From Roseiarcus fermentans (GTDB lineage: Bacteria > Pseudomonadota > Alphaproteobacteria > Rhizobiales > Beijerinckiaceae): 64,000 nt of DNA. The notes beneath the pieces are model-generated. The model saw nothing but the letters and a program-made list of their open reading frames with translations. It was not told the DNA's origin and ran no database searches. Below are positions 1-42,495 of this stretch, in pieces (positions within the stretch are counted from its first letter, which is position 1; each line of letters begins with the position of its first letter). The position numbers and the translations under genes are program-made. The stretch is taken from positions 1-64,000 of the forward strand of contig NZ_QNRK01000027.1 in the NCBI RefSeq assembly GCF_003315135.1. The letters are read 5' to 3'.

Positions 1-116
1 TTGCTCGCAAGGAAGGGCGGCGGGACGACCAGAGGGCGCGACAGCGGCCCAGCGGCCCTGGATCGCTTCGCTTCGCTCGCGATGACGGCGCTGTTCGCTG
101 CCGGCTTGGGAGTTAC
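1..116. repeat. Dispersed repeat family A, copy 1 (left edge)
   Basis: This gene-free left edge resembles two other places in the window (about 38701–38847 and 42350–42495). Shared pieces include a GGGCGGCGGGAYGA core, a run like CAGCGGCCCAGCGG, a GATCGCTT…GCTCGC block followed by GATGACGGCG, and a tail of TTGGGAGTT. This copy lacks the long CCCCGGG stem block present in the other two. The left limit cannot be seen because the window begins inside it. Confidence 0.7.
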
Positions 117-187
117 AAAGTGACAGCATTCGTCACTCAACCGATTGAAATTGCAGCGCCCTTGCCAAGAGCGCCGGTTCGCCCGCC

Positions 188-2146
<1,959 letters not shown>

Positions 2147-2317
2147 GAGGGCCTCCCGAGCGAGTCTGTCTAGCGAAGGCGCGCCGCGATGGCGAGGGCG
2201 GCGCAATCGCGCCTCAATTGTTCCCTATCCGCCCTGTGGTCCAATCGACGGGCGCCGTCGCATCCCTGTCGCCCGGGCGGCGGAGGATCGTCCGACACGA
2301 AAGGAACCAGCCGGACC

Positions 2318-3586
2318 ATGAGTCTGCTGAATAACGCGCGCGCCCTTCTCCGGCGCTTTGGTCTTCGCGGCGCCGACGAGTCTGCGGCGGACGCCGCCGG
2401 CGCGGAAACCGCGGTCGCCGCGCCGATCTCGCCGGCGCCGATCGGGGCTGCGAGCGCCGCGACGGAAGGCGGGCCGAGCCTTTCCGGGCGGCCGGCGGCG
2501 GACGGCCCTGCCGTCAAAGCGACGCAGACCCGCGTCGCGAAGGCCGCTCCGCAAGCCATTCCGCCCGACGGCCTCCCGGGCGCGGCGCAAGCGCCCGCGC
2601 CGGCGCGATTGGCCGCGTCCGTCTCCAGAGCGCTCTCCGCCCGGCGCCCGGCGCCGTGGCCGCCGGAACAGCTGTCGCTCGCGCTCCAGGGCGGCGGGTC
2701 GTTCGGCGCGTTCGCCTGGGGCGTGCTCGACCGTCTGCTCGAGGAGCCGGGGATCGCGTTCGACTCCGTCAGCGGCTCGAGCGCCGGCGCCGTCAACGCG
2801 GTCCTGCTGGCGTCGGGCATGATCGAGGGGGGACGAGCGGGCGCGCGCGCCCGCCTGTCGCGTTTCTGGCGACGCGCCAGCCAGGCGGCCGCGCTGGCGC
2901 CGGCGGCGTCATCGCCGCTGACGGCGGGTCTCGAACTGATCACGCGGCTGATGTCGCCCTATCAGTTCAACCCGTTCAACGTGAATCCGCTGCGCGAGGC
3001 GCTGGAAGCGGAGGTCGACTTCGAGCGCCTGCGGGAACGCTCCCGGATCAAGCTCCTGCTCGGCGCGACCCGCGTCCGCGACGGAAGCCTGCGCATCCTG
3101 ACCAACGAAGACCTGACGGTCGACGCGGTGCTGGCCTCCGCCTGCCTGCCGCTCCTGCATCATGCGATCGAACTCGACGGCGAAGCCTACTGGGACGGAG
3201 GCTACGCGGCCAATCCGCCGCTCATTCCCCTCGTGCGCGCCTCCGAAGCCGAGCACGTCCTGATCGTCCAGGTCACCCCGAACCTGACCGATCGGCTGCC
3301 CCGGACGACGAGCGAGATCGCCGCGCGGATCGAGCAGATCCAGTTCAACGCCACGCTGAACAGCGAGCTCGAGGCGCTCGAGTACGGCAAGATCATCGGA
3401 GCGGCGGACAAGCTGCGCAAGCTCAGGATCGGCCGGATCTCGGCGGACGACCACTTCGTGCGGTTCGGCGCGGAAAGCGCCGCCAATCTGCGCTGGGAAT
3501 TTCTCGCGCGGCTTTTTCTGGGCGGACGCGCCGCCGCCGGGCTGTGGCTCAACCAGGGCCTTCCGGCGTTGCGGCGCAGGGCGTGA
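2318..3586 (+). CDS. Patatin-like phospholipase
   Basis: This 422-residue protein belongs to the bacterial patatin family of Ser-Asp dyad lipid acyl hydrolases. The oxyanion-hole motif GGGSFGAFAWG begins near residue 125, the nucleophile elbow GSSAG follows with Ser near 155, and a DGGYAANPP motif supplies the catalytic Asp. The first roughly 115 residues are a low-complexity Ala/Pro-rich stretch with no recognisable domain and no clear signal peptide. The ATG at 2318 is preferred over upstream in-frame starts because AAAGGAACC precedes it. The substrate is unknown; the family acts on phospholipids or stored polyester. It stands alone and diverges from the carboxylase subunit gene on its left. 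Confidence 0.88.
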   Translation: MSLLNNARALLRRFGLRGADESAADAAGAETAVAAPISPAPIGAASAATEGGPSLSGRPAADGPAVKATQTRVAKAAPQAIPPDGLPGAAQAPAPARLAASVSRALSARRPAPWPPEQLSLALQGGGSFGAFAWGVLDRLLEEPGIAFDSVSGSSAGAVNAVLLASGMIEGGRAGARARLSRFWRRASQAAALAPAASSPLTAGLELITRLMSPYQFNPFNVNPLREALEAEVDFERLRERSRIKLLLGATRVRDGSLRILTNEDLTVDAVLASACLPLLHHAIELDGEAYWDGGYAANPPLIPLVRASEAEHVLIVQVTPNLTDRLPRTTSEIAARIEQIQFNATLNSELEALEYGKIIGAADKLRKLRIGRISADDHFVRFGAESAANLRWEFLARLFLGGRAAAGLWLNQGLPALRRRA

Positions 3587-24612: not shown

Positions 24613-24872
24613 GCGCGCGACGGTCCGCCCGTCAGGCTTCCGCCGAATCCAGCACCACGAAGCCTGCGCCCGAGCGCGTCGTCGAATCGGCCGGCTTGTC
24701 GGTCGTCACCACCGTCAGGCCGAACTTCAGCCGCTGGCGGATCGCCTCGCGCAACCGCCGGGTCGGCCTTCAGCCGCCGGATCGTCGAGGCGTTATCGGC
24801 GCCGGCCGCCAGCCCGGTCGGCGAGCGCGCGGGGCGCCGGGTGGACACGCCGTTGCGGAGTTGTTCGGAGGA
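24613..24872 (-). pseudogene. Decayed, internally deleted copy of the adjacent L,D-transpeptidase gene
   Basis: This stretch is a direct repeat of the L,D-transpeptidase gene at 25353–26339, in the same orientation. The first 190 bases match the gene's 3' end nearly base for base, including a few bases beyond the stop codon (24613 pairs with 25334). The match then jumps about 680 bases to the gene's 5' part near 26190 (GGCCCGGTCGGCGAG) and fades near 24872. A GCCGGCC microhomology lies at the jump. An extra A (GCGCAACCGCC against GCGCACCGCC) shifts the frame. It cannot make an enzyme. Confidence 0.85.
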
Positions 24873-24961
24873 ATATCTCCCAGAGACGATCTCATGGGCA
24901 AATCACGGGAAAAGCGCCAGAGCGTGGGATTGATGGGGCTTTGCAGGATTAGAGTGCTCGA

Positions 24962-25333
24962 ATGAACAAATTTGCGAAACATACAGTTCCAGAGTTGCTT
25001 GAGCAGTTTCGGAACGCCTGCCTGGCGCAGTATGACACGTATCTGACTGAGAATGTCAGCAAACGCAACAAGTTGTTCGATTTCCTACTCGCGGTGACGC
25101 GCGAACTGAAGCGCCGCGGCGTCGAGGAGCGGCGGTCGCTGCTGACTTTGTTCGCCGACAAGAACCCTCAGGTCCGGTTTCAAGCGGCGAGCTTCGTCTA
25201 TGCCGTTGCGCCGGTCGAGGCGAAGGCTTGCCTGGAGGCGATCGCCGCCGCCGGTTTGCCTGATCAATCCTTGTCCGCGGGGATGACTCTGAGTGGGCTG
25301 GAAGAGGACCCGACCTGCTTGGACTGGATTTAA
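24962..25333 (+). CDS. DUF2019 family protein
   Basis: This 123-residue soluble protein resembles DUF2019: an N-terminal helix with VPELLEQFRNACLAQYD, then ADKNPQVRFQAASFVYAVAPVEA, a HEAT-like helical pair, and an end like SAGMTLSGLEEDP. DUF2019 proteins are small, often linked to polymorphic-toxin immunity contexts, but no toxin is visible here. The gene is clearly poorer in GC than its surroundings (29 of 60 bases at 25021–25080), a sign of transfer. Its stop codon (25331–25333) touches the first base of the duplicated transpeptidase 3' end, so the gene lies exactly between the complete gene and its decayed copy. Confidence 0.75.
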   Translation: MNKFAKHTVPELLEQFRNACLAQYDTYLTENVSKRNKLFDFLLAVTRELKRRGVEERRSLLTLFADKNPQVRFQAASFVYAVAPVEAKACLEAIAAAGLPDQSLSAGMTLSGLEEDPTCLDWI

Positions 25334-25352
25334 GCGCGGGACGGTCTGCCCC

Positions 25353-26339
25353 TCAGGCTTCCGCCGAATCCAGCACCACGAAGCCCGCGCCCGAGCGCGT
25401 CGTCGAATCGGCCGGCTTGTCGGTCGTCACCACCGTCAGGCCGAACTTCAGCCGCTGGCGGATCGCCTCGCGCACCGCCGGGTCGGCCTTGAGCCGCCGG
25501 ATCGTCGAGGCGTTGTCGGCCCCGGCCATTCTGGTGAGGCGCTCGATCTCGGCGGCGTTCCAGCGCAGTTCGCCGCTGCGGTCGTCGACGCCCGAAAGCG
25601 TGAACACCCGCTCGCCGAGCGGCTTGCCCGGATCGGCGATCTCGACCGAGCCGCGCGCGACCACCGCGCCGTTGTCGAACACGGTGATCGAACGGTCGGC
25701 GCCCGAGACGACGACGCTCGGCGAACGCGGCGCGGCCTCGTGCCCTTCCGAATATTCGGCCTGCTTGATCGAGGCGTCGACGGCGTTGAACTCGCGCGCG
25801 GCGTATTCGCCGAGCACCATGCCGGGATGGACCACCTCCTCCGGCTGCGAGGCGTCGTCGGCGATCACGACGGTCATGCCGAGCCGGGTGATGTCGAACA
25901 ATCGCGCCGAAAAGTCCTTGGGCAGGCGCACGCAGCCGTGCGAGGCCGGATAGCCCGGCAATTGCCCGGCGTGCAGCGCGATTCCCGACCAGGTGAGCCG
26001 GTTCATGTTGGGCATCGGCGCGTTGTTGTAGGTCGAGGAGCGGTGATTCCGGTCCTTTTGCAGGATCTTGAACACGCCGGTCGGGGTGCGGTGGCCGGGC
26101 TTGCCGGTCGAGCAGGTGGAGACGGCGATCTGCACGCCGTTGCGGTAGACGTAGACGCGCTGGTCGGGCAGCGAGACAATGATCAGCGCCGGCCCGGTCG
26201 GCGAGCGCTCCGGGCGCCAGGTGAACTCGCCGTTGCGGAGCTGATCGGCGGAGGCGTCGACGAGTTGGGCGAGGGCCGGCCCGAGACGGAGGATCGAGGC
26301 GGCGGCGAGGGCGGCGCGGCCGAACTGACGGCGATTCAT
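25353..26339 (-). CDS. L,D-transpeptidase (YkuD domain)
   Basis: This 328-residue protein has a Tat/Sec-like N-terminus (MNRRQFGRAALAAASIL) and one YkuD catalytic domain, residues about 50–160. The active-site block has His near 123 (ALHAG) and SHGCVRLP with the nucleophile Cys at 136. Such enzymes crosslink peptidoglycan by 3–3 bonds or attach proteins to it in the periplasm. The C-terminal half (FTLSGVDDRSGELRWNAAE, then a basic tail) matches no domain I recognise. The start follows GGGGAG. Its 3' end is duplicated at 24613–24872. Confidence 0.9.
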   Translation of the reverse strand: MNRRQFGRAALAAASILRLGPALAQLVDASADQLRNGEFTWRPERSPTGPALIIVSLPDQRVYVYRNGVQIAVSTCSTGKPGHRTPTGVFKILQKDRNHRSSTYNNAPMPNMNRLTWSGIALHAGQLPGYPASHGCVRLPKDFSARLFDITRLGMTVVIADDASQPEEVVHPGMVLGEYAAREFNAVDASIKQAEYSEGHEAAPRSPSVVVSGADRSITVFDNGAVVARGSVEIADPGKPLGERVFTLSGVDDRSGELRWNAAEIERLTRMAGADNASTIRRLKADPAVREAIRQRLKFGLTVVTTDKPADSTTRSGAGFVVLDSAEA

Positions 26340-26462
26340 TCGGAAGCGGCTCCCCAGCGCTCAGGCGTTCGATTCGATAGCGCGATTGATCGCGGTCGCG
26401 CAATCTCCTATAGGCAAAGGGCCTATCGAAGCCTCGGTCGTTTGGGATTTGAAGGAGCGCTC

Positions 26463-26792
26463 GTGGCGGAGCAACACGAAAATCTCGTCCTAGAGCATCT
26501 GCGCGGCCTGCGCAGGGACATCGACGATATCAAGCAGACACTCAGGACGGACATGGCGACCAAGTCCGATCTCCATTCCCTGCGGGCCGACGTCGCCTCC
26601 GACTTGTTGACGATACAAGCCGAAATGGCGCGGATGCAAAAGGACACCCGCGAGCAGATCGTCGGCCTTCGCCGGGCGGTGGTCGAGTATCATTCCGCTG
26701 TCGTGGGACACGGGATCATCATCAGCGAACTCGAGGAGCGGGTTCGCCGGCTGGAACAGCATCTCAATCTGCCGTCGCTGGAGCGCCACTGA
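26463..26792 (+). CDS. Small coiled-coil protein
   Basis: This 109-residue protein is almost entirely helical, with heptad-like spacing and many charged residues: LVLEHLRGLRRDIDDIKQTL, MATKSDLHSLRADVASDLL, then ISELEERVRRLEQHL at the end. No membrane segment or catalytic motif is visible. Similar short proteins are common in Hyphomicrobiales and are unassigned. The GTG start at 26463 follows AAGGAG at a good distance. It sits between the L,D-transpeptidase and the decayed lpxK copy and diverges from the former. Confidence 0.7.
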   Translation: MAEQHENLVLEHLRGLRRDIDDIKQTLRTDMATKSDLHSLRADVASDLLTIQAEMARMQKDTREQIVGLRRAVVEYHSAVVGHGIIISELEERVRRLEQHLNLPSLERH

Positions 26793-26820
26793 ATGCTGTT
26801 GGTCCGTCCGCGGAGCAGCG

Positions 26821-27131
26821 TCCAGCCGAACCCCCGCCGCAGTATCTCTCCCTCACCCGCGCCGACCCCTCGAACCACAGCGTCACCGGCAGCGTCGCGA
26901 CGGCGCGGGCATTAGCGCCGAGCCGGACGCGGTCCTTTCGGTGGCGACCAGAATCGCCCGGCGCCGCGCCGCCTCCTCGATCAGCGCCTCGACCTCGTGC
27001 GGCCGGAACGGGTGGTCGGGGAAGTCGTGGCGGGCGACGCCGGCGACAGCGACCACCTCGCGCCCGATCAGCGCGGCGGCCACCGCGACCGTGTCCGGCT
27101 CGCGGCGAACACCGGCCGGTCGGGCGCGCGC
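26821..27131 (-). pseudogene. Decayed copy of the lpxK 3' end
   Basis: This is a direct repeat of the 3' end of lpxK (27770 onward), in the same orientation; 26821 pairs with about 27769. Read on the minus strand it still shows AALIGREVVAVAGVA joined to RHDFPDHPFRPHEVEALIEE. A 57-base segment has been lost between two GCGGGCGA repeats, one His codon of PDHHPF is missing, and a later frameshift turns TTEKDRVRLG into unrelated residues. The copy fades near 27131, just before the brnA stop codon. Confidence 0.85.
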
Positions 27132-27138
27132 CCGTTCG

Positions 27139-27438
27139 CTATCTTCCCGCCTTCGCCGGCGCCGGGCGCGCCTTCGCGGACGCTTCCGCCTTCGGCCCGA
27201 ACCCCTCGCGAAGCACCTTCTCGACGCGGGCGTTGTAGCCCGGCCCGCTCGCCCGGATGCGTTCCACAAGCTCGGCGCTCAACCGGAAGCCGACGCGCAC
27301 CTTCGGCGCCTCGGACTTCGGCCGGCCGCGCCGAACCGGCGTCGCGGCGAGCTTCGCCTGATACTCCGGGGTCGACAGGTCCGGGGCGTCCTCCGGGTCA
27401 ATCCAGTCGGCTGCCGTAGAGGGCTTGTTCCCGGTCAT
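27139..27438 (-). CDS. brnA: BrnA-family antitoxin
   Basis: This 99-residue protein has the BrnA layout: an acidic N-terminal region (WIDPEDAPDL) and a ribbon-helix-helix-like C-terminal part with RRGRPKSEAPKVRVGFRLSAELVERIRASG, followed by GYNARVEKVLREGF. The Lys/Arg-Pro-rich tail is variable. BrnA binds and neutralises the BrnT ribonuclease and represses the operon promoter. The gene follows brnT, the usual order. It sits between the decayed lpxK copy and the intact lpxK. The frame is intact. Confidence 0.85.
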   Translation of the reverse strand: MTGNKPSTAADWIDPEDAPDLSTPEYQAKLAATPVRRGRPKSEAPKVRVGFRLSAELVERIRASGPGYNARVEKVLREGFGPKAEASAKARPAPAKAGR

Positions 27439-27447
27439 TGGCCTTCC

Positions 27448-27675
27448 TCAGGCTGATGATGCGGCGAGCCGCGCCGCGCCGCGCGGGGTCCAGACGCTCA
27501 CGACCATGCGCCTGTCGAGGCGGCCGATCGTGATGAAGCGCGGCTCGCCATAGTCTTTCCGCGCGTCAGCGACGGTCAGCGTCGCGCCGGCGAAAATTTC
27601 GGCCGCCCGCGCCCTATCGAGACCCCGGCGGTCGAGAGTCGTCTGGCGCTTGTCGAGGTCGAATTCGATCTTCAC
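27448..27675 (-). pseudogene. brnT: BrnT-family toxin, frameshifted near its C-terminus
   Basis: The first 68 residues match BrnT ribonuclease toxins: MKIEFDLDKRQTTLDRRGL, RAAEIFAGATLTVADAR, YGEPRFITIGRLDRRMVVSV, WTPRG. After RGAAR the frame is lost and the protein ends LAASSA at residue 75. The next frame reads RIISLRKANDREQALY and would stop at 27398, overlapping the brnA start, as in normal brnTA operons; the restored product would be about 91 residues. The cause is a net gain of two bases (or five) around CGGCTCGCC at 27460–27480. As read, the toxin lacks its conserved RIIS…RKAN end and is probably inactive. Confidence 0.8.
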
Positions 27676-27769
27676 GATTTATTGTGGCGACAATAACGCC
27701 GATCGGCAAGCCTCGGTTCGGCTGAGAAGCGGCGCCCGAGCCTTACCGCTGCCTGTCGCTTCGCGACGT

Positions 27770-28750
27770 TCAGCCGAACAGCCGCCGCAGCATCTCCCTC
27801 ACCCGCGCCGACTCCTCGAACCGCAGCGTCACCGGCAGCGTCGCAACGGCGCGGGCGTAGGCGCCGAGCCGGACGCGGTCCTTTTCGGTGGTGACCAGAA
27901 TCGCCCGGCGCCGCGCCGCTTCCTCGATCAGCGCCTCGACCTCGTGCGGCCGGAACGGGTGGTGGTCGGGGAAGTCGTGGCGGGCGACGATTTGCGCGCC
28001 GACCCGCCTCAGCGTGGCGTAGAACTTGTCCGGGCGGGCGATGCCGGCGAAGGCGACCACCTCGCGCCCGATCAGCGCGGCGGCCGAAACCGCGTCCGGC
28101 TCGAGGCTCGCGGAGAACACCGGCCGACCGGGCGCGGCCGCCTCGGCGCCGCGCCGGGCGGCGACATCGCCGCCGATGACGACGAGGGCGCCGACCAGCG
28201 GCGCCTGCGCCACGAGCGGCGCGCGCAGCGGTCCCGCCGGAAGGCACAAGCCGTTGCCGAACCCCTGCGGGCCGTCGACCACCGCGATGGCGAGGTCTTT
28301 GGCGAGCGCCGGATTCTGCAGGCCGTCGTCGAGCACCAGGACCTCGGCGCCCGCCTCGACCGCGAGCGTCGCGCTGCGGAGGCGGTCGGGTCCGACCCAG
28401 CAGGGGGCGATCTGCGCCAGCAGCAGCGGCTCGTCGCCGACGATCGCCGCGGTGTGGAGGATGGGATCGACCCGCACGGGCTCGGCGCGGCGGGCGCCGC
28501 CGTAGCCGCGCGACAAAAACGCGACGCGCCGGCCGTCGGCCATCAGCATGCGCGCCAGCGCCATCGCGGTCGGCGTCTTGCCGGCGCCGCCGGCGACGAA
28601 ATTGCCGACGCAGACCACCGGCGCGCCGACCGTCGCGCCGCGCTTGCGCATGCGGCGCGCCGTCACCGCTCCGTAGATCATTCCGGCGGGCTGCAGAAGG
28701 CGAGCGAACGCCGTCGGCTTCCGGGCCGCCCAGAAGCCGGGCGCCCTCAC
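27770..28750 (-). CDS. lpxK: Tetraacyldisaccharide 4'-kinase LpxK
   Basis: This 326-residue enzyme phosphorylates the 4' position of the lipid A precursor on the cytoplasmic side of the inner membrane. The N-terminal region has PAGMIYGAVTARRMR and the Walker A-like VGNFVAGGAGKTPTAMALARML. Later motifs are FLSRGYGG, VLDDGLQNPALAKDLAI and RHDFPDHHPFRPHEVEALIEEA. The GTG at 28750 overlaps the waaA stop (GTGA), so the genes are translationally coupled. A decayed copy of its 3' end lies at 26821–27131, with brnTA between. Confidence 0.94.
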   Translation of the reverse strand: MRAPGFWAARKPTAFARLLQPAGMIYGAVTARRMRKRGATVGAPVVCVGNFVAGGAGKTPTAMALARMLMADGRRVAFLSRGYGGARRAEPVRVDPILHTAAIVGDEPLLLAQIAPCWVGPDRLRSATLAVEAGAEVLVLDDGLQNPALAKDLAIAVVDGPQGFGNGLCLPAGPLRAPLVAQAPLVGALVVIGGDVAARRGAEAAAPGRPVFSASLEPDAVSAAALIGREVVAFAGIARPDKFYATLRRVGAQIVARHDFPDHHPFRPHEVEALIEEAARRRAILVTTEKDRVRLGAYARAVATLPVTLRFEESARVREMLRRLFG

Positions 28751-38617: not shown

Positions 38618-38847
38618 GGCAACTCCCAACCCCGTCTTTGCGAGGAGCAACCCCCGGGTCGAAGAGCCCGGGGGGACGAAGCAACCCATGCCGCCGGTTT
38701 GCTCCGTCTTCTGCTCGCGACGAAGGGCGGCGGGACGATCAGAGGGCGCAACAGCGGCCCAGCGGCCCTGGATCGCTTCCCCCCGGGCTCTTCGACCCGG
38801 GGGTCGCTCGCGATGACGGCGTTCTTCACCCCGCCTTGGGAGTTGCC
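38618..38847. repeat. Dispersed repeat family A, copy 2 (full, with outer inverted arms)
   Basis: Outer arms GGCAACTCCCAA (38618–38629) and TTGGGAGTTGCC (38836–38847) are perfect inverses. Inside each lies a long palindromic block with GGGTCGAAGAGCCCGG (left) and CCGGGCTCTTCGACCC (right), then GGCGGCGGGA and CAGCGGCCCAGCGGCCC in the centre. No gene is present. The right half reappears at 1–116 and 42350–42495, so this is a mobile or amplified palindromic repeat and the best-preserved copy of the family. Confidence 0.85.
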
Positions 38848-42115: not shown

Positions 42116-42349
42116 CGCAGACCCGGCTCAGCAATCATGCGTTTATAGGCGACATTCGACCACTTGAATGCCGTGCGCAGCGAGAAGATGCCCGTCGCCG
42201 CGACTTCGGTCAAATCGCGGGGCGCGAAGTGATTCGTAGTTCACAACGCTAACAGAAAGATCGCGACCTTTCCAGGCGAGACTTCCGGACGGAATGCGTG
42301 TTCGTCACGTGCGCTGTTCTCCCCGGACCGCGTCCTGCGGTAAGAATGG

Positions 42350-42495
42350 CTCCGTCTTCTGCCGCAACGAAGGGCGGCGGGATGATCAGAGGCCGCAACA
42401 GCAGCCCAGCGGACCTGGGTCGCTTCCCCCCGGGCTCTTCGACCCGGGGGTCGCTCGCGCTGACGGCGCTCTTGGCTGCCGGCTCGGGCGCTACA
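42350..42495. repeat. Dispersed repeat family A, copy 3
   Basis: This copy repeats the right half of the family: GGGCGGCGGGATGATCAGAG, CAGCAGCCCAGCGGACC, CCCCGGGCTCTTCGACCC and GCTCGCGCTGACGGCGCT. It lacks the outer arms seen in copy 2. Several base differences (GCTGACGG for GATGACGG) show it is an older or diverged copy. It occupies most of the gap before rpmI together with the leader hairpins. No gene was found in the gap from 42116 to 42738. Confidence 0.7.

What the first reader, a model, noticed from the sequence alone, without database searches (positions are those of the whole stretch)
24613..27770. Two parallel 3'-end duplications, each with a small accessory gene set inserted between
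Seen directly: at the L,D-transpeptidase the order is decayed 3' copy, DUF2019 gene, intact gene. At lpxK it is decayed 3' copy, brnA, brnT, intact gene. Both copies are direct repeats, both have lost internal blocks between short repeats (GCCGGCC; GCGGGCGA), and in both an accessory gene's stop abuts the duplicated part. Inference: the cassettes arrived by a mechanism that rebuilds the 3' end of a host gene, as integrative elements do at tRNA genes, and two such events in 3.2 kb make chance unlikely.
Basis: partly seen in the sequence, partly recalled or inferred. Interest (0 to 1): 0.8.

Follow-up and report, generated by a model that had tools for sequence, protein, structure and literature searches.

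The report
Toxin-immunity cassettes flanked by gene-end copies
Two small toxin-related gene cassettes sit beside ordinary bacterial genes, each boxed in by a decayed copy of that gene's tail, and the same scar recurs elsewhere in this genome, in its relatives and in phage-like contigs, which suggests that such cassettes are added by recombination that leaves the neighbouring gene working.

Summary
A YkuD L,D-transpeptidase gene and lpxK each have a direct, decayed copy across an inserted cassette. A same-genus genome (G004) has one lpxK and no brnTA there: the empty site. Both cassettes are toxin-linked: brnTA is a type II toxin-antitoxin pair with a truncated brnT; DUF2019 follows the tail of an HHxVE-type toxin (clear in 7 of 8 units of this genome). 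The same scar occurs here at uvrA, ureB and carbonic anhydrase/SDR, at uvrA in G003, in G008 and G039, and in 9 of 12 viral contigs holding phrog_13692. At the ureB-ureC gap, G004 carries in tandem two cassettes found singly in other species. I favour a donor fragment (gene end plus cassette) that closed on itself and entered by one crossover, a route whose published duplications (109-950 bp) match ours. Insertion with long target duplication, known for restriction-modification genes, is the main rival. No recombinase or shared junction motif was found, so the integrative-element analogy is only partly supported. Against toxin specificity: enrichment here is moderate, some non-toxin genes are bracketed too, and BrnT in viral contigs shows no scar (0 of 14).

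The parts
24613..24872 (-). decayed copy of the L,D-transpeptidase gene: 3' part plus a 66-bp piece from near its 5' end, internal block of about 660 bp lost
24863..24965 (+). 3' tail of an HHxVE-type toxin gene; its truncated end coincides with the end of the transpeptidase copy
   Evidence: homology to C14 starts at 24863; translated tail and relatives
24962..25333 (+). DUF2019 gene, proposed immunity gene
   Evidence: PF09450, E 2.8e-20; model matches PDB 2i9c
25334..26252 (-). segment of the intact locus that was duplicated (about 919 bp)
25353..26339 (-). intact L,D-transpeptidase (YkuD)
26463..26792 (+). 109-aa ORF, the ancestral neighbour of lpxK in G004 too
26819..27128 (-). decayed copy of the lpxK 3' end, lying next to the ancestral neighbour
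27139..27438 (-). brnA antitoxin gene
   Evidence: PF14384
27448..27675 (-). brnT toxin gene, C-terminally truncated (matches 63 of 77 profile positions)
   Evidence: G004 relative has 90 aa
27767..28136 (-). segment of the intact lpxK locus that was duplicated (370 bp)
27770..28750 (-). intact lpxK (start codon not fixed)
   Evidence: PF02606, E 1.4e-90

Best explanation
Both duplications are scars of adding a toxin-linked cassette next to a gene. DNA from an occupied allele, carrying part of the gene up to its end plus the adjoining cassette, closes on itself at an illegitimate joint and integrates by one homologous crossover inside the gene part. The product is: complete gene, cassette, then a truncated end of the gene joined to the old neighbour. 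The gene stays whole, so the event is tolerated, and the redundant piece decays. Shown: anatomy, the empty lpxK site, recurrence, and tandem carriage at ureB-ureC in G004 of two cassettes found singly in other species. Inferred: the circular intermediate, the donor alleles, and that DUF2019 is an immunity protein.
For: G004 shows the empty lpxK site, and the decayed copy keeps the ancestral flank. The toxin tail and the transpeptidase copy break at the same place, 24863-24872. At ureB-ureC this genome reads ureAB, VapBC, ureC start, ureB end, ureC; a closed fragment (ureB end, VapBC, ureC start) crossing over in ureB gives that order, simple target duplication around VapBC does not. G004 reads ureAB, pair 1, ureC start, pair 2, ureC; pair 1 is nearest G003's pair (PIN 74%, antitoxin 62%), pair 2 nearest the antitoxins of G001 (89%) and G008 (82%). 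Similar scars: uvrA here and twice at uvrA in G003, ureB, G008 and G039, viral contigs. In E. coli, incoming DNA with homology to the lacZ end gave duplications of 109-950 bp (14 clones sequenced), ascribed to recircularisation and single crossover (PMC3240628, passages and section 12).
Against: No donor allele with DUF2019 beside the transpeptidase, or brnTA beside lpxK without a scar, was found in the genomes compared. The codon-position test does not separate the models (23, 23, 44 at positions 1, 2, 3). Copies are nearest to each other, so any donor must be very close. BrnT in viral contigs: 0 of 14 with a scar. Some non-toxin genes are bracketed.
Confidence: 0.5

Rival explanations
1. Insertion with long target duplication: at a break with widely spaced nicks, or at a restarted fork, the cassette is captured and the target segment is filled in on both sides. 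No donor allele of the same locus is needed.
For: Described for restriction-modification genes (passages in PMC3874152, PMC3031569, PMC1643837). The window loci, uvrA and L396 fit target-cassette-target. The two copies belong to the same lineage. A Ku gene is present here (C17).
Against: The ureB-ureC order here and the two different pairs stacked in G004 do not fit. No Ku match was found in G002, G004 and G005, and G004 has a scar.
Confidence: 0.3
2. Ordinary tandem duplication of the gene, with the cassette already beside it or inserted later by chance, followed by decay.
For: Tandem amplification occurs: two DUF2019 units of about 599 bp at 87.6% and three SDR copies at C14.
Against: At lpxK G004 has neither cassette nor copy; the copies end at the cassette edges, and the same arrangement recurs at unrelated genes.
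Confidence: 0.1
3. Small integrative elements with site-specific integration that rebuild the 3' end of the target gene, as at tRNA genes.
For: The final layout, complete gene then cassette then displaced 3' end, is the same.
Against: No recombinase recognised in the cassettes, no fixed core, no shared junction motif of 7-8 bases, unrelated target genes, scars at 5' ends as well.
Confidence: 0.05

Closest known systems
Insertion with long target duplication of restriction-modification genes (Nobusato 2000; Furuta 2010: texts not held, known here only through passages of other papers)
   Same: Toxin/antidote-like genes inserted with long, variable direct duplication of the target
   Different: Here BrnT, PIN and toxin-DUF2019 cassettes, in alpha-proteobacteria and phage-like contigs; the ureB-ureC locus points to stacking of alleles
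Single-crossover entry of recircularised incoming DNA, and homology-facilitated illegitimate recombination (PMC3240628, passages and one section read)
   Same: Partial duplication of a gene end of 109-950 bp next to the foreign piece; one homologous and one illegitimate joint
   Different: There a laboratory plasmid in E. coli; here inferred from natural scars
Effector-immunity arrays of Vibrio type VI secretion clusters (PMC5361080, passages read) and orphan Rhs/CDI tips (cited there)
   Same: Successive additions leave older immunity genes and 3' ends of older effectors behind
   Different: There the anchor is the secretion cluster or the toxin gene; here also housekeeping genes and phage structural genes
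BrnT/BrnA toxin-antitoxin (PF04365, PF14384)
   Same: Both genes present in the usual order
   Different: The window brnT lacks the C-terminal part of the family profile

Membership tests
Insertion with long target duplication | Long direct duplication of the target on both sides of the insert | tested here: met
   370 and about 919 bp
Insertion with long target duplication | Related genome with a single target copy and no insert | tested here: met
   lpxK in G004; for the transpeptidase G004 has one copy but another downstream neighbour, so only partly
Insertion with long target duplication | Insert lies exactly between the two target copies | tested here: inconclusive
   met at lpxK, transpeptidase and uvrA; not met at ureB-ureC
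Single-crossover entry of a closed donor fragment | Complete gene, cassette, truncated gene end, ancestral flank, in this order | tested here: met
Single-crossover entry of a closed donor fragment | Existence of a clean gene-cassette donor allele | tested here: inconclusive
   present at ureB-ureC in five genomes; not found for lpxK or transpeptidase
Single-crossover entry of a closed donor fragment | RecA-dependent crossover and circular intermediate | not testable with these tools
   needs bench work
Integrative element rebuilding a gene 3' end | Integrase or recombinase gene in the element | tested here: not met
   cassette ORFs examined
Integrative element rebuilding a gene 3' end | Fixed core sequence shared by insertions | tested here: not met
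   seven junctions: nothing at 7-8 bases; a 6-mer reached 15 of 200 shuffles
BrnT/BrnA type II toxin-antitoxin | BrnT and BrnA family domains in adjacent genes | tested here: met
   both over the curated cut-off
BrnT/BrnA type II toxin-antitoxin | Full-length toxin | tested here: not met
   63 of 77 profile positions
Polymorphic toxin-immunity module (DUF2019) | Conserved pairing of toxin and small downstream gene | tested here: met
   7 of 8 units here clearly; 13 of 19 viral contigs
Polymorphic toxin-immunity module (DUF2019) | Small protein protects against the toxin | not testable with these tools
   needs expression test

The most novel reading that the evidence does not exclude
Toxin-DUF2019 modules, and at times BrnT and PIN pairs, are mobile without any recombinase: each travels as a fragment with the end of whatever gene it adjoins and adds itself there by one crossover, so that it can colonise gene ends without harm and leaves stacked gene-end copies as a record of past additions. 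DUF2019 would be an immunity family against an undescribed, phage-linked HHxVE nuclease-like toxin.
Probability: 0.3. Interest if true: 0.68.

Novelty: new variant of a known kind. Interest (0 to 1): 0.5.

Why it matters
It offers a visible, countable scar of how toxin-antitoxin and immunity genes enter genomes without a transposase, and a reason why gene ends are favoured: the neighbour survives. Scars can be counted and dated in any genome. It also gives DUF2019, a family of unknown function with a solved structure (2i9c), a testable role.

Tried and rejected
Chance repeats: rejected; the window repeats are long, direct and found at one locus only in the 1.18 Mb held, and a control family (GNAT, 30 of 36 loci tested) had none.

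Toxin-specific association: only moderate. Own toxin/immunity loci with a scar: 5 of 50 (BrnT 2 of 9 loci, PIN 1 of 30 tested of 36 matches, ParE 0 of 6, DUF2019 2 of 5 with the repetitive C9 cluster left out) against 4 of 435 random windows, p = 0.0009; without the two window loci 3 of 48, p = 0.024; also without C14 2 of 47, p = 0.11; against GNAT 0 of 30, p = 0.088. The random count began as 12 of 436; by inspection I dropped L148, L150, L151, L153, two windows of L160 and L181 as repeat proteins, repeat arrays or dispersed repeats, and the C14 window, leaving L152, L155, L169, L170. Among toxin loci I likewise dropped L282 and L324 (54 and 85 hits), L283 (79 bp at 75%), L255 (38 bp), L270 (25 bp). 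At C8 a weak 72% repeat (101 bp) flanks the DUF2019 pair; it was not counted. In the genus, 30 BrnT loci gave 3 hits; in L205 the repeat overlaps BrnT's own end, so 2 remain. BrnT in viral contigs: 0 of 14, control 0 of 198.

Non-toxin brackets: an enoyl-CoA-hydratase-like 3' end around an adhesin-like ORF (L152), a LysR-like 5' end around an SDR (L155), an acyltransferase piece around a lipase-like ORF (L169), and a secreted-protein-like ORF between two uvrA ends in G003; these gene names are by eye. So I do not claim that addiction keeps the repeats; the window brnT is truncated anyway.

Codon-position test: inconclusive. Toxin fold: only about residues 120-233 are confident and there is no PDB match at E 0.001. 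One DUF2019 protein against plasmids and one toxin against phage records: no match. A single-protein DUF2019 scan of viral contigs found none, the alignment scan 19.
Full report
WHAT IS THERE. The window is contig C27 of a 6.79-Mb genome in 90 contigs. Its genus-mate G004 appears to be the MAG titled 'uncultured Rhizobiales bacterium' (CAIZGR01; same contig number and length). On the left lie a decayed transpeptidase copy (24613-24872), a toxin tail (24863-24965), the DUF2019 gene (24962-25333) and the intact YkuD gene (25353-26339). On the right lie a decayed lpxK 3' copy (26819-27128), brnA, brnT and intact lpxK (27770 to about 28750). The copies are direct, diverged by 4-14%, and so are not an assembly doubling. 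The duplicated segments span about 919 bp and 370 bp; with the cassettes (about 461 and 638 bp) the repeat units are about 1380 and 1008 bp, the spacings of the outer repeat pairs.

EMPTY SITE. In G004 the order is transpeptidase, the 109-aa ORF, one lpxK, with no brnTA and no second lpxK end. The alignment shows that the decayed copy, not the intact gene, keeps the ancestral flank. A close brnTA lies elsewhere in G004 (C326, 83%) without flanking repeats, so the cassette has different addresses. For the transpeptidase, G004 has one copy but a different downstream neighbour (an argG-like ORF by eye), so that empty site is less complete.

WHAT THE CASSETTES ARE. brnTA is a type II toxin-antitoxin pair; the window's brnT covers 63 of 77 profile positions while G004's relative has 90 residues, so this toxin is probably inactive. 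Of eight DUF2019 units in this genome (C27, C14 twice, C8 twice, C13 twice, C1; five longer DUF2019-like ORFs at C9 left out), seven are clearly preceded by a toxin or its tail; at the second C8 unit only a stub of a few residues can be seen. C1 and the first C8 unit have the HHIVE motif; the C14 first and C13 first tails contain a stop. Eleven viral toxin sequences from nine contigs share invariant HH.VE, N, H and N positions, which by recall resemble an HNH-type nuclease. The three toxins had no Pfam hit over the cut-off (one weak HTH-type hit, E 0.017), and that of L396 none at 0.001. The model of the window's DUF2019 protein is confident (pLDDT 93.9) and matches PDB 2i9c from Rhodopseudomonas palustris (TM 0.89). 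One paper of the library holds the word DUF2019 (listing only). I infer that DUF2019 is the immunity partner.

RECURRENCE IN THE GENUS. The uvrA 3' end is duplicated here (224 bp, 94.6%) around BrnT plus an HTH protein. Eight relatives (G001, G002, G004, G006-G010) showed one uvrA end in the stretch held; their second matches are internal to the gene. G003 has three uvrA ends: after the gene come a nucleotidyltransferase-like ORF (antitoxin-like by eye), a 148-bp uvrA end at 82%, a secreted-protein-like ORF, a 106-bp uvrA end at 73%, and then a PIN-like ORF. The ureB 3' end is duplicated here (166 bp, 76.5%) near a PIN plus MazE-like pair. At C14 two DUF2019 units lie between a carbonic anhydrase gene and its decayed copy, and an SDR 3' end is repeated too; G004 has carbonic anhydrase close to the neighbouring exonuclease-like gene. 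That locus is compound and I do not claim its exact history. In G008 a hydrolase 3' end (82 bp, 79.5%) brackets BrnT plus HTH. In G039, another family, the 3' end of a prohead protease gene (288 bp, 91%) brackets toxin plus DUF2019. DUF2019 is rare in the order: 9 of 297 genomes.

RECURRENCE IN VIRAL CONTIGS. Nineteen IMG/VR contigs hold DUF2019 relatives. Thirteen of 19 have the HH-motif toxin within 700 bp upstream, and 13 of 19 have direct repeats on the two sides; of these, L400's is 37-38 bp, L407 repeats a DUF2019 gene and L399 a toxin N-terminus. A stricter test gave 11 of 19 against 27 of 148 control positions in the same contigs, inverted 0 of 19. Of 12 contigs with phrog_13692 (named; unknown function), nine carry 3'-end-only copies starting at various residues; L411 and L412 look like one virus twice, L404 shows only end pieces in the stretch held, and L397, L399 and L402 show none. 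In L396 about 530 bp spanning the end of a 116-aa gene and the start of a tape-measure-like gene (phrog_2854, E 1.7e-5) are duplicated around toxin plus DUF2019, so that each gene is whole in one copy.

THE TELLING LOCUS. Between ureB and ureC G002, G010 and G009 have gaps of 81, 118 and 208 bp. G001, G003, G006, G007 and G008 have gaps of 797-858 bp with a VapBC-like pair or similarity to one and no scar. This genome reads ureAB, VapBC, a 51-bp ureC start, a 160-bp ureB end, ureC. G004 reads ureAB, pair 1, a ureC start, pair 2, ureC. Pair 1 is nearest G003's (PIN 74%, antitoxin 62%); the pair 2 antitoxin is nearest those of G001 (89%) and G008 (82%). So G004 carries in tandem two cassettes that other species carry singly at the same site. 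A closed fragment of ureB end, VapBC and ureC start crossing over in ureB gives the layout here; simple target duplication around VapBC would put the ureC piece before it.

MECHANISM. In E. coli, incoming DNA with homology to the lacZ end gave mostly (56 of 60 clones by PCR) duplications, 109-950 bp in 14 sequenced clones, ascribed to recircularisation and single crossover; true homology-facilitated illegitimate recombination was rare (PMC3240628). A process akin to the latter was proposed for effector-immunity arrays in Vibrio (PMC5361080, passages). The window fits: toxin tail and transpeptidase copy break at the same place, and complete gene, cassette, truncated copy and old flank lie in the predicted order. 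Both copies are nearest to each other (uvrA by a small margin, the transpeptidase with one outgroup), so donor and recipient would be close kin. Insertion with long target duplication, described for restriction-modification genes (passages), explains most single loci equally well and is the main rival.

LIMITS. The toxin association inside this genome is moderate (counts and dropped rows in Tried and rejected). Some non-toxin genes are bracketed. BrnT in viral contigs shows no scar. Searches for toxin-antitoxin with target duplication, with flanking repeats, and for BrnT with insertion and pseudogene listed no paper whose title or abstract start describes this for toxin-antitoxin genes; only an open-access library was searched.

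Noticed in passing
G000:C9:45803-49503 (L153): Five tandem ORFs of 292-335 aa with DUF2019-like matches and 85-99% internal repeats: a recent amplification of a longer DUF2019 family.
   Followed up: no
window 38701-38826 and 42349-42473: A 126-bp dispersed repeat with 41 matches in the 1.18 Mb held; related short repeats make up many local direct repeats of this genome.
   Followed up: partly
window 26463-26792; L169 13994-14347 (C4): A coiled-coil-like 109-aa ORF without a Pfam hit beside lpxK has a look-alike of 117 aa in C4.
   Followed up: no
G000:C35:66212-70180 (L264, L265, L283): Three PIN genes within 4 kb, with ORFs that look like pieces of a tyrosine recombinase and a 79-bp repeat at 75% around one pair.
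   Followed up: no
L360-L368 and L371, between ureB and ureC: The ureB-ureC gap is a hot spot: a VapBC-like pair or its likeness in seven of ten genomes compared, two different pairs in tandem in G004.
   Followed up: yes
L429 (G003:C16) 1-3235: The end of uvrA appears three times with a different ORF between successive copies, so the uvrA end is a repeated target in this genus.
   Followed up: partly
L398, L401, L403, L406, L410, L414: The toxin-DUF2019 cassettes sit just after a gene of phrog_13692, a phage family of unknown function, which suggests that the toxin is linked to phage particles or phage-derived elements.
   Followed up: partly
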